Below, piece after piece: positions 28,453 to 30,735 of a DNA stretch of 33,218 nt. The notes beneath the pieces were generated by a model that had not been told where the DNA came from, did not search any database, and was given only the letters and a program-made list of their open reading frames with translations. The stretch is from Deltaproteobacteria bacterium (lineage in GTDB: Bacteria; Myxococcota_A; Bradymonadia; REDH01): NCBI GenBank assembly GCA_007693585.1, contig REDH01000124.1, forward strand, positions 1 through 33,218, read 5' to 3'. The number at the start of each line of letters is the position of its first letter. Position 1 is the stretch's first letter. The position numbers were made by a program, and so were the translations under genes.

Positions 28453-28471
28453 CTGACGTCGCCGACGTCAG
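28453..28471 (-). terminator. Hairpin overlapping the ribA stop codon
   Basis: CTGACGTC (28453-28460), three-base loop, GACGTCAG (28464-28471) form a perfect 8-bp inverted repeat. It includes the ribA stop codon (28468-28470). It could end the minus-strand transcript or shield its 3' end; no T run follows. Confidence 0.5.
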
Positions 28472-29139
28472 AGGTCGAGCAGGTGTCCGGACTTGCGGCG
28501 TTTCGTGACGAGGTAGAAGCGGTTGTGCGGGTTCGGGTCGCACTGGATGGGGGCGCGGGTGGCGACGGCCACGCCGTGCGAGCGCAGGCCGGCGACCTTG
28601 TTCGGGTTGTTGGTGTACAGCTCGACGGACCGGATGCCGAGGAGGTGGATCATGCCCGCGGCGACGTCGTACTCGCGGAGGTCGTCGTCGAAGCCCAGGT
28701 GCAGATTGGCCTCCACGGTGTCCATGCCGCGGTCCTGCAGGCTGTAGGCCTTGATCTTGTTGGCGAGCCCGATGCCTCGCCCCTCCTGCCTCAGGTAGAG
28801 GACGACACCGAAGTCCCGCGTGGCGACGGCGTCGATTCCCGCCTCGAGCTGGTCCCGGCAGTCGCACTTGAGGGAGCCGAAGACATCACCGGTGAGGCAT
28901 TCGGAGTGCAGGCGCACGGGCACGGCTTCGCGGCCGGCGACGTCGCCTCGGACGAGCGCCACATGATCGAGCGAGTCCTTGGTGTTGCGGAAGGCCACCA
29001 TCTCGAAGCTGCCGTTGCGGGTGGGCAACTGGGCGCGGGCGAATATCTCGACGCGCAGTCCGTCCGCGAGGTCGATGACCTCACCGGGCTGCCCCGTGAA
29101 CTCCGGTCCGATGTCGGCGAGGAGGGGTTGTGCGCTCAT
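28468..29139 (-). CDS. ribA: GTP cyclohydrolase II
   Basis: RibA opens GTP to 2,5-diamino-6-ribosylamino-4(3H)-pyrimidinone 5'-phosphate, the first committed step of riboflavin synthesis. It has 223 residues, the length of a stand-alone enzyme with no DHBP-synthase (RibB) domain. The zinc site is Cys81 (HSECLTGD), Cys92 and Cys94 (KCDC). The GTP-binding loop is LRQEGRGIGL. GIRSVELYTNNPNKV is the conserved C-terminal block. The ATG before SAQPLLAD is chosen because the upstream frame (THLPTAEPHPCG) is not protein-like; its ribosome binding site is poor. Other riboflavin genes are not adjacent and no FMN riboswitch is seen upstream. The Fic-like gene lies 73 bases upstream on the same strand. 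Confidence 0.96.
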   Translation of the reverse strand: MSAQPLLADIGPEFTGQPGEVIDLADGLRVEIFARAQLPTRNGSFEMVAFRNTKDSLDHVALVRGDVAGREAVPVRLHSECLTGDVFGSLKCDCRDQLEAGIDAVATRDFGVVLYLRQEGRGIGLANKIKAYSLQDRGMDTVEANLHLGFDDDLREYDVAAGMIHLLGIRSVELYTNNPNKVAGLRSHGVAVATRAPIQCDPNPHNRFYLVTKRRKSGHLLDL

Positions 29140-29212: not shown

Positions 29213-30043
29213 TCAGCGGTCGGGAGGTGCGTCACCGCGGTGCAGAAAGCGATCCAGCAGGCTGGCCTGCTGCTTCCACGCTTCCGCGCTCACCTCGGTA
29301 AGTCTCCTGATGTCGTAGTGAAGGGACTGGTAGTACGCATGCCGCATGCTGGCCGGAATCACGGGGGCCGGGAAGCCCTGCGCCTCGAGGACGAGTGCGG
29401 CGATGCCGCGCGCGAGAATGCCGCTTCCCGTCTCCCAGGGCCAGAGTCGGGCGTATCGGTGATGGGCCTCCACGGCGAGCTGCAGCGGTGGGCGGGTGTA
29501 GAACGCCTCGGCGAGCCACTCGAAGAAGGCGGTTGTGGCCGTGGGGATCTCGCCGGGGGGCACGGTGTCGTGCTTGTACTGCTCGGTGGCCCCATCCGAG
29601 GTGCGAAGTGCGGCGCCGCCCTCCCCTCCCAGCCGGCCGGCGAAGTCCTCCCACAGCTCCGGTGACGGCGGTCCGGCCAGCGAGGCCGCCGCCTCGGTGA
29701 CGGAGACGACGACGCCGTGGATGGCGCGGATGTGGGCGAGGTGTCGGCCATCCACGTAGTCGCGCCCGGAGGAGCCCCCCAGCGCTCGCGCGATGTCGTC
29801 GTCCGCGAGGGTGACGCCCTCGACCCCCAGCTCGCTGGCCAGCCGGTAGCGGCTCCACTCCTGCGCCCACCGTTCGCGAACGTCGCCTGGCGCGTCCAGC
29901 AGTCGCTGCTGCAGCCGCTCGAGGGTCTCTTCCATCTCCAGGTACCAGGTCGCCACGCTCGCCTCGCTGCGATGGTCGCGCCCCGTCCGGGGCGGCAGGT
30001 CCGTGAACCTCGGGAAGCTAGACGCCGGACCGCCCCCGGTCAA
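29213..30043 (-). CDS. Fic-like protein with degenerate active-site loop (pseudo-Fic)
   Basis: The product has up to 276 residues from a TTG at 30043 (GGGGA eight bases upstream); a GTG at 29956 with GAGG five bases upstream is the alternative. The layout follows Fic (filamentation induced by cAMP) proteins: an N-terminal helix with LGVEGVTLADDDI where class II Fic proteins have the inhibitory S-x-x-x-E-G helix; HLAHIRAIHGVV; then TVPPGEIPTATTAFFEWLAEA where the flap-like P-P region lies; then AVEAHHRYARL and the loop WPWETGSGILAR. The canonical loop is H-P-F-x-[DE]-G-N-G-R-x-x-R. Trp201 replaces His, Thr205 the acidic residue, Ser207 the Asn and Ile209 the Arg, while Pro202, Gly206, Gly208 and Arg212 stay. 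AMP transfer is therefore unlikely. It lies between folK and ribA. Confidence 0.6.
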   Translation of the reverse strand: MTGGGPASSFPRFTDLPPRTGRDHRSEASVATWYLEMEETLERLQQRLLDAPGDVRERWAQEWSRYRLASELGVEGVTLADDDIARALGGSSGRDYVDGRHLAHIRAIHGVVVSVTEAAASLAGPPSPELWEDFAGRLGGEGGAALRTSDGATEQYKHDTVPPGEIPTATTAFFEWLAEAFYTRPPLQLAVEAHHRYARLWPWETGSGILARGIAALVLEAQGFPAPVIPASMRHAYYQSLHYDIRRLTEVSAEAWKQQASLLDRFLHRGDAPPDR

Positions 30044-30189: not shown

Positions 30190-30735
30190 ATGCCCACCCC
30201 CACGCCCCGCACGGCGCTCGTCGCCCTCGGCAGCAACCTCGGCGACCGCCGCGCGCACCTCCGTCGCGCGCTCGACGCCCTCCCTGCCCTGGCCTGCGGC
30301 CCGGTGTCGGCGTCCGACGCGTGGGAGACGGCCCCCATGTACCTCGAGGAGCAGCCCCCTTTCCTCAACGCCGTCTGCCGCTTCGCCACCACGCTGCCGG
30401 CGTCGGTGCTGCTCGACGCCCTGCTCGGACTCGAGACGCGCCTCGGCCGCCGCCGTCTCCAGCGCAACGGCCCCCGCGCGATCGATCTCGACCTCCTCGA
30501 CCTCGGCGGCGAGCGCGTCGCCCTCGACGGTCTCACGCTGCCCCATCCGCGCCTGCACGAGCGCCCGTTCGTCCTCGTCCCCCTCCTCGAGCTGTGCCCG
30601 GAGTGGACCCACCCGGAGCTGGGTGCAGATCCGGAGGCGATGCTGCGCGCCCTCGGCCCCCTCGACGACCCCCCGCGACGCCATGGTTCCCTGACCTCCG
30701 CGACCCCTTCCGCCCTCCCCGGCTCTTCCCGATGA
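30190..30735 (+). CDS. folK: 2-amino-4-hydroxy-6-hydroxymethyldihydropteridine pyrophosphokinase
   Basis: FolK (HPPK) transfers pyrophosphate from ATP to the pterin in folate synthesis. It has 181 residues. LVALGSNLGDRRAHLRRAL is the family opening. ETAPMY follows. RNGPRAIDLDLLDLG holds the two magnesium-binding aspartates, and PHPRLHERPFVLVPLLEL is the substrate-closing block. The ATG has GGAG four bases upstream. The last 20 or so residues (RRHGSLTSATPSALPGSSR) are not part of the fold. The stop overlaps the next ATG (ATGA). folB and folP are not in the window. Confidence 0.96.
   Translation: MPTPTPRTALVALGSNLGDRRAHLRRALDALPALACGPVSASDAWETAPMYLEEQPPFLNAVCRFATTLPASVLLDALLGLETRLGRRRLQRNGPRAIDLDLLDLGGERVALDGLTLPHPRLHERPFVLVPLLELCPEWTHPELGADPEAMLRALGPLDDPPRRHGSLTSATPSALPGSSR

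What the first reader, a model, noticed from the sequence alone, without database searches (positions are those of the whole stretch)
29213..30043. Fic-fold protein that has lost the AMPylation loop: His, acidic, Asn and first Arg all replaced
Seen: around residues 194-212 the protein reads HHRYARL followed by WPWETGSGILAR, and is preceded by a YKHDTVPPGEIPTATTAFFEWLAEAF segment and followed by ALVLEAQGFP. Known: Fic enzymes need H-P-F-x-[DE]-G-N-G-R-x-x-R, with His as catalytic base, Asp/Glu for Mg2+, and Asn and Arg for phosphates. Here four of these are W, T, S and I, while P, both G and the last R stay. The same family's inhibitory helix is also present in altered form (LGVEGVTLADDDI). Inference: the fold is kept for another purpose, such as a nucleotide or protein sensor, a decoy, or a different transferase. 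It stands alone next to ribA and folK, without a toxin-antitoxin partner.
Basis: partly seen in the sequence, partly recalled or inferred. Interest (0 to 1): 0.75.

Follow-up and report, generated by a model that had tools for sequence, protein, structure and literature searches.

The report
Myxobacterial Fic protein lacking catalytic residues
This gene encodes a protein with the fold of AMP-attaching Fic enzymes but none of their catalytic chemistry; it is not a dying gene, because a single conserved copy with the same losses occurs across a large part of the phylum Myxococcota, so the fold has probably been kept there for a binding or regulatory job that, as far as I could find, has not been described.

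Summary
Its active loop is WPWETGSGILAR where active enzymes have HPFx[DE]GNGRxxR. An AlphaFold2 model (pLDDT 92) is closest by Foldseek to human FICD (TM 0.82-0.85); Pfam Fic matches at 24.7 bits, cut-off 24.

It is not decay. 46 of 57 genomes of the class (46 of 49 outside one family) carry one clearly separated copy, as do many other families of the phylum. In 127 distinct members the catalytic His is F, Y, W or M, never H, and the motif Asn is lost in 125. The inhibitory-helix Glu-Gly and the last loop Arg are invariant. Close pairs show dN/dS 0.04-0.26. The weaker homologues examined within the phylum are nearly all canonical HPFxDGNGR proteins. Neighbouring genes change between lineages, and near-complete single-contig genomes exist where this is the only Fic match, so no toxin-antitoxin partner is needed.

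Most likely: a vertically inherited pseudoenzyme derived from a class II Fic. The Glu-Arg lock persists as structure and the protein acts by binding a partner. Partner and function are unknown; another chemistry (as in AvrB) is not excluded. The window copy is one of the most diverged members.

The parts
29213..29956 (-). Fic-fold pseudoenzyme gene, 247 aa, GTG start, stop at 29213-29215
   Evidence: orthologues start at the same place; Pfam Fic; AF2 model pLDDT 92
29816..29821 (-). Codons of Glu46-Gly47, the inhibitory-helix pair (E-G of the class II motif [S/T]xxxE[G/N]; the S/T position is Glu42 here)
   Evidence: Invariant in 127 of 127 distinct members; lies at the C-terminal end of predicted helix 24-45
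29564..29605 (-). Flap region, residues 118-131 (RTSDGATEQYKHDT); in the main clade it reads R-[KR]-[DE]-x-P-x-H-R-x-Y-[FY]-H-[ED]-I
   Evidence: Arg118 invariant 127/127, Tyr127 position Y 123 / F 4
29408..29443 (-). Degenerate active loop, residues 172-183, WPWETGSGILAR (canonical HPFx[DE]GNGRxxR)
   Evidence: first position F60/Y59/W6/M2, never H; last Arg invariant
28468..29139 (-). ribA (GTP cyclohydrolase II, PF00925) downstream, same strand, about 77 nt gap; adjacency kept in Bradymonadales but not elsewhere
30190..30735 (+). folK (HPPK, PF01288), divergently transcribed neighbour; its start may lie further upstream; not part of the finding

Best explanation
The protein belongs to a previously unlabelled family of Fic pseudoenzymes, descended once from a class II Fic AMP-transferase and inherited as a single-copy gene in Myxococcota. 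SHOWN by sequence or prediction: it keeps the Fic fold, the N-terminal inhibitory helix with its Glu-Gly, and the last Arg of the loop (R2). It has lost the catalytic base His in every member (replaced by an aromatic in 125 of 127), the Asn in 125 of 127, and the Mg-binding acid in 90 of 127. INFERRED: the fold is permanently off as an AMP-transferase. The invariant Glu and R2, which form the autoinhibitory salt bridge in FICD, stay as a structural lock holding the closed form. The protein acts by binding, most likely a protein partner over the flap and pocket face, in the way the Fic domain of BepC recruits GEF-H1 without catalysis. In the main clade, a basic loop (K/R at the Mg-acid and R1 positions, as in YPWTKNSGKVAR) might still hold a phosphate ligand without Mg. 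The window's copy (T176, I180) has lost that too.
For: Fic fold: and an independent member 75, 82. Clean bimodal family: 46 of 57 class genomes at 205 bits or more, next matches at 80 bits or less; other families of the phylum at 129-234 bits. His column F60/Y59/W6/M2 in 127 distinct members; Glu-Gly, R118 and R2 127/127. The weaker homologues fetched are canonical HPFxDGNGR (one own-genome copy is QPFVDVNKR) and most carry the class II inhibitory motif. Purifying selection, dN/dS 0.04-0.26 in 16 close pairs. Members form one side of the tree, SH-aLRT 86, with the loop columns left out. No constant gene partner. 19 class genomes, two of them single-contig (G010, G042), hold it as their only Fic match. 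FICD Glu234-Arg374 salt bridge: PMC12974487. BepC non-catalytic Fic: PMC7842960.
Against: No partner, ligand or phenotype is known. Absence of known catalytic residues does not prove absence of catalysis: AvrB lacks the motif yet is a rhamnosyltransferase (PMC10866546). Root and ancestry rest on few, long-branched canonical outgroups, so 'one origin from class II' is moderately supported. I had no model coordinates, so the Glu46-Arg183 contact was not measured. For the window's own copy purifying selection could not be tested, since its nearest relatives are about 35% identical.
Confidence: 0.6

Rival explanations
1. Phosphate or nucleotide sensor: the loop's anion nest plus K/R residues and R2 bind a phosphorylated ligand without Mg, and binding competes with the inhibitory Glu, switching the shape seen by a partner.
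For: K/R at the Mg-acid position in 69 of 127 and K/R at R1 in 85 of 127; G2 kept in 122. BepC with Lys for the acid binds an ATP analogue through that Lys (PMC8401265, PMC7842960). The FICD pocket also accepts isoprenoid diphosphates (PMC12974487).
Against: The window protein has neither basic residue (T176, I180). Loop chemistry varies by lineage (K/R versus D/E), which is odd for one conserved ligand.
Confidence: 0.17
2. A transferase with a new chemistry that does not need the loop His, as AvrB (also a Fido fold without the motif) transfers rhamnose.
For: AvrB precedent (PMC10866546). Family-wide near-invariant polar residues outside the loop: H41, D/E42, R118, R205, Y208; in the main clade also flap His and Arg.
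Against: The window protein lacks H41 (Ser), W38 and N187. The flap His/Arg pair is missing in Bradymonadales and in the window's family. No shared metal-binding or base residue is left in all members apart from Glu46.
Confidence: 0.12
3. Antitoxin-like or competitive neutraliser of canonical Fic proteins in the same cell, through the inhibitory Glu in trans or hetero-dimerisation.
For: The Glu-Gly motif is invariant; Fic proteins can neutralise other Fic proteins, as Fic1 does Fic2 in Campylobacter fetus (PMC5651007). The window's genome has a canonical Fic (HPYLDGNGR) elsewhere.
Against: 19 of the 46 carrier genomes have no other Fic match, including single-contig genomes 96-99% complete. 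Never found next to a Fic gene in the neighbourhoods examined.
Confidence: 0.06
4. A deAMPylase: the Glu that activates water in FICD is kept, so the protein could remove AMP from targets.
For: Glu of the inhibitory helix invariant 127/127; in FICD this Glu aligns the hydrolytic water (PMC8373988).
Against: FICD deAMPylation also needs His363 and Mg held by Asp367; the His is absent in all 127 members and the acid in 90.
Confidence: 0.03
5. Decaying pseudogene in this one genome.
For: The window copy sits on the longest branch among members (1.71) and has lost W38, H41 and N187, which at least 96% of members keep.
Against: Intact ORF with confident predicted fold; relatives in the same taxonomic family also have W in place of His and an intact gene, with dN/dS 0.04-0.07 among four of them.
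Confidence: 0.05

Closest known systems
Class II Fic AMP-transferases and FICD/HYPE (PDB 6i7h, 4u04, 6i7g)
   Same: Fold (TM 0.82-0.85 on the query), N-terminal inhibitory helix ending in Glu-Gly, last loop Arg, Pro and second Gly of the loop, flap Arg
   Different: No catalytic His, no Mg acid, no Asn, no R1 in the window protein; S/T of the inhibitory motif is Asp or Glu; no TPR or other extra domain
BepC (Bartonella effector with HxFxKGNGRxxR)
   Same: Non-canonical loop with Lys in place of the Mg acid in many family members; a Fic domain that works by protein binding, not catalysis
   Different: BepC is class I, keeps His and GNGR, and has OB and BID domains for secretion; this family is a bare chromosomal Fic domain without His
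Bartonella Bep8-type domains (PFxxGNE)
   Same: Highly degenerate loop with canonical fold
   Different: They keep GN and put Glu at G2; unrelated lineage, secreted effectors with extra domains
Doc clade D2 of Khater and Mohanty (Qx[FY]x[DE][GV]NKR)
   Same: Catalytic His replaced throughout a clade
   Different: His to Gln with the rest of the motif kept; Doc type without the inhibitory helix seen here. The QPFVDVNKR protein on contig C1 of this genome fits that motif; the finding does not
AvrB (rhamnosyltransferase)
   Same: Fido fold without the Fic motif
   Different: Type III effector with its own extra domain; no detected sequence relationship was tested here
PADLOC PDC-S04 and SoFic (defence candidates)
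   Same: 51 of 52 family members match these profiles through the Fic domain
   Different: The window protein scores only E 0.044; the gene sits among housekeeping genes in single copy, not in defence-type surroundings

Membership tests
Fic domain (PF02661, Fido fold) | Pfam gathering score | tested here: met
   24.7 bits against 24; all 66 members of A3 match
Fic domain (PF02661, Fido fold) | Fic fold in a predicted structure | tested here: met
   pLDDT 92, Foldseek FICD E 1.3e-8; second member pLDDT 93, same result
Active Fic AMP-transferase | Catalytic His of HPFx[DE]GNGRxxR | tested here: not met
   W172; none of 127 distinct members has His
Active Fic AMP-transferase | Mg-binding D/E, Asn and R1 of the loop | tested here: not met
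   T176, S178, I180 in the window; no member has acid, Asn and K/R1 together
Class II Fic | Inhibitory Glu-[GN] on a helix N-terminal to the core | tested here: met
   Glu46-Gly47 at the end of predicted helix 24-45, invariant in the family
Class II Fic | S/T four residues before the Glu | tested here: not met
   Glu42 in the window; D 92 / E 35 across the family
Fic deAMPylase (FICD type) | Inhibitory Glu together with His and Mg acid | tested here: not met
   Glu kept, His absent in all, acid absent in the window and in 90 of 127
Fic toxin-antitoxin module | Adjacent antitoxin gene | tested here: not met
   Neighbours are ribA and folK here and other housekeeping genes elsewhere
Non-catalytic Fic protein-binding domain (BepC-like mode) | Function that survives loss of active-site residues, through a protein partner | not testable with these tools
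   Needs pull-downs and genetics
Fic pseudoenzyme family (this report) | Clade-wide loss of His with purifying selection | tested here: met
   for the window copy itself dN/dS could not be tested
PDC-S04 / SoFic defence | Profile match and defence-type surroundings | tested here: not met
   Window E 0.044; near-universal single copy among housekeeping genes

The most novel reading that the evidence does not exclude
The family is not dead: it carries out a new transfer or hydrolysis reaction on a Fic fold without the loop His, using residues conserved outside the loop (D/E42, Glu46, R118, R205, Y208, and in most lineages H41 and flap His/Arg), as a core function of Myxococcota.
Probability: 0.12. 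Interest if true: 0.8.

Novelty: new variant of a known kind. Interest (0 to 1): 0.5.

Why it matters
Known non-canonical Fic proteins are mostly scattered single cases, Doc-type clades or secreted effectors. Here a bacterial lineage has kept an inactive Fic domain as a near-universal, single-copy chromosomal gene with no toxin-antitoxin partner, and has kept exactly the autoinhibitory Glu-Arg pair while discarding the catalytic residues. That makes a clean test case for what a Fic fold does when it cannot modify anything, and relatives occur in cultured species (Lujinxingia vulgaris, Anaeromyxobacter oryzae). It also warns that Pfam 'Fic' annotation in Myxococcota should not be read as AMPylation.

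Tried and rejected
Pseudogene or local decay: rejected by class-wide and phylum-wide conservation. Antitoxin for a canonical Fic: rejected as a general role, since 19 carrier genomes have no other Fic match. A conserved operon partner: the neighbourhood comparison of 80 named loci found lineage-specific neighbours only (ribA in Bradymonadales and L136; in other lineages rsmH, an aminotransferase of class IV, an AP-endonuclease-like gene with a DHH protein, argH, a lysA-like decarboxylase, rpiA). ribA coupling: gaps of 77-463 nt, so no tight coupling. Defence system: see the PADLOC row. The NCBIfam matches XopAC/AvrAC and mobile mystery protein B are generic Fic-domain similarity below or without relevance to their cut-offs. 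A GTDB scan with the window protein alone found nothing; the alignment A2 worked. Naming genome G200 as Sandaracinus amylolyticus from its contig length was a recollection and could not be confirmed from the paper, so it is not used. Literature searches for Fic proteins in Myxococcota or Anaeromyxobacter gave no paper describing this family; the library misses most subscription papers, and searches were few.

Full report
WHAT IS THERE. The gene lies on the minus strand. All orthologues begin at the position of the GTG at 29956, so the protein is 247 aa. Numbering below is for the 247-aa form. The loop WPWETGSGILAR is residues 172-183; in phmmer alignments to PDB chains it falls exactly on Fic loops. 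The family match to Pfam Fic is real but just over the cut-off for this copy (24.7 against 24 bits); all 66 members of alignment A3 match, at E values down to 1.8e-15.

FOLD. AlphaFold2 with 66 family sequences gives mean pLDDT 92 and pTM 0.88. Foldseek against the PDB returns FICD/HYPE structures first (E 1.3e-8, TM 0.82-0.85 normalised by the query), then other class II Fic proteins. A second, independent member (Anaeromyxobacter oryzae, L088) gives pLDDT 93 and the same result. I had no coordinates, so contacts within the models were not measured.

FAMILY. With the window protein alone, 29 of 38 relatives match. With a 21-sequence profile, 46 of 57 genomes of the class hold one copy at 205-356 bits, and the next matches are at 80 bits or less. 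The eleven without it are eight genomes of one taxonomic family (f3) and three incomplete MAGs of f5. In 284 genomes of the phylum (which include the class), by my count 58 genomes outside the class have it at 129-234 bits, in whole taxonomic families (f14, f18, f28, f34, f42 and others), while other families lack it. A scan of 84,980 GTDB species found 91 relatives; the 80 listed are labelled Myxococcota, 'Deltaproteobacteria', 'Proteobacteria' or unnamed MAGs, plus one 'Bdellovibrionales' MAG that nests inside the myxococcotal clade. Named carriers include Lujinxingia vulgaris, order Bradymonadales, and Anaeromyxobacter oryzae. The window's genome is of the same class as L. vulgaris by the tool's kinship (G021 = L065).

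ACTIVE SITE ACROSS THE FAMILY. In 127 distinct members the catalytic-His column is F 60, Y 59, W 6, M 2. The Mg-acid column is D/E in 37 and K/R in 69. Asn is S 91, T 20, P 14, N 2. R1 is K/R in 85. The second Gly is kept in 122. The last Arg (R2) is 127/127. Glu46-Gly47 of the inhibitory helix is 127/127, Arg118 127/127, Arg205 and Tyr208 127/127. No member has acid, Asn and K/R1 together. By contrast, the homologues that fall below the family's score gap and were read are canonical HPFxDGNGR proteins (L176-L183, L030), most with a class II motif such as SNAIEGN; the window genome's own other two are HPYLDGNGR (L141) and QPFVDVNKR (L142).

SELECTION AND ANCESTRY. Sixteen close pairs give dN/dS between 0.04 and 0.26, which is purifying selection on proteins that already lack the catalytic residues. 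A tree without the loop columns puts the 108 retained members on one side and five canonical outgroups on the other, SH-aLRT 86, with long outgroup branches; a single origin from class II Fic is likely but not firmly shown. The window copy has the longest branch among members (1.71). It has lost W38 (Arg), H41 (Ser) and N187 (Ala), kept by at least 96% of members. It groups with its family (99, starred).

CONTEXT. Here the gene has ribA 77 nt downstream on the same strand and folK divergent upstream. ribA is the downstream neighbour in seven named Bradymonadales-type loci, the window and L136, with gaps of 77-463 nt; in L110 it lies on the other side and opposite strand. Elsewhere the neighbours are rsmH, a class IV aminotransferase, an AP-endonuclease-like gene with a DHH protein, argH, a decarboxylase of the lysA type or rpiA, according to lineage. 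No neighbour is universal. Nineteen carrier genomes of the class have no other Pfam Fic match, including G010 and G042, single contigs of 99% and 96% completeness. This rules out a required toxin-antitoxin or Fic-Fic partnership.

HOW IT MOST LIKELY WORKS. In FICD the inhibitory Glu234 forms a salt bridge with Arg374, the R2 of the motif (PMC12974487), and deAMPylation needs Glu234, His363 and Mg held by Asp367 (PMC8373988). The family keeps only the Glu and R2. I infer that they remain as a structural lock and that the protein acts by binding. A precedent is BepC, whose Fic domain recruits GEF-H1 even when four active-site residues are mutated (PMC7842960). In the main clade the flap is strongly conserved (YRK[DE]xPxHRxYFHE), consistent with one conserved partner, but it is altered in Bradymonadales and in the window's family, so the partner face may have shifted there. 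Shown: fold, distribution, losses, retained Glu and R2, purifying selection. Inferred: loss of AMP-transfer activity, salt-bridge lock, partner binding.

RIVALS. A Mg-free phosphate-ligand sensor is plausible for the main clade, since K/R at the acid position recalls BepC, where that Lys contacts the phosphates of an ATP analogue; it is weak for the window copy. A new chemistry is possible, as AvrB shows. A deAMPylase is unlikely because the His is gone. Decay is unlikely except as a caveat on this single diverged copy.

NOVELTY. Fic proteins with damaged loops are known: Bep8, BepC, C. fetus Fic2, Doc D2 clade, AvrB. I found no description of a chromosomal, single-copy Fic family without the His that is spread over a phylum, in a limited literature search. 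I file it as a new variant of a known kind.

Noticed in passing
Genome G000 contig C1:4057-4347 (locus L142): A second non-canonical Fic in the same genome reads QPFVDVNKR, which fits the His-to-Gln Doc clade D2 motif described by Khater and Mohanty 2015; a third (C173, L141) is HPYLDGNGR.
   Followed up: partly
Family flap, window residues 118-131 and equivalents in L061-L183: In most lineages the flap carries a conserved R-[KR]-[DE]-x-P-x-H-R-x-Y-[FY]-H-[ED]-I signature with several His and Arg; in Bradymonadales (SPGVYHLD) and the window (GATEQYKHD) it is different. Its role is unknown.
   Followed up: partly
L082: A MAG contig labelled Bdellovibrionales carries a member that nests within a myxococcotal clade (support 99), so it is probably a mislabelled or contaminated MAG, or a gene transfer.
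   Followed up: partly
Class family f3 (G007, G012, G015, G018, G020, G023, G026, G029): This one taxonomic family within the class has no member of the family at all; most of its genomes have canonical Fic proteins instead, which suggests a loss.
   Followed up: no
L061-L068 and window 28468-29139: ribA follows the pseudo-Fic gene in all seven Bradymonadales-type loci where both were seen, but with intergenic gaps of up to 463 nt; whether the link is functional is open.
   Followed up: partly
PADLOC profiles PDC-S04 on alignment A4: 51 of 52 scanned members match the defence-candidate profile PDC-S04, so defence-annotation pipelines may report this housekeeping-like gene as a phage defence candidate.
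   Followed up: partly
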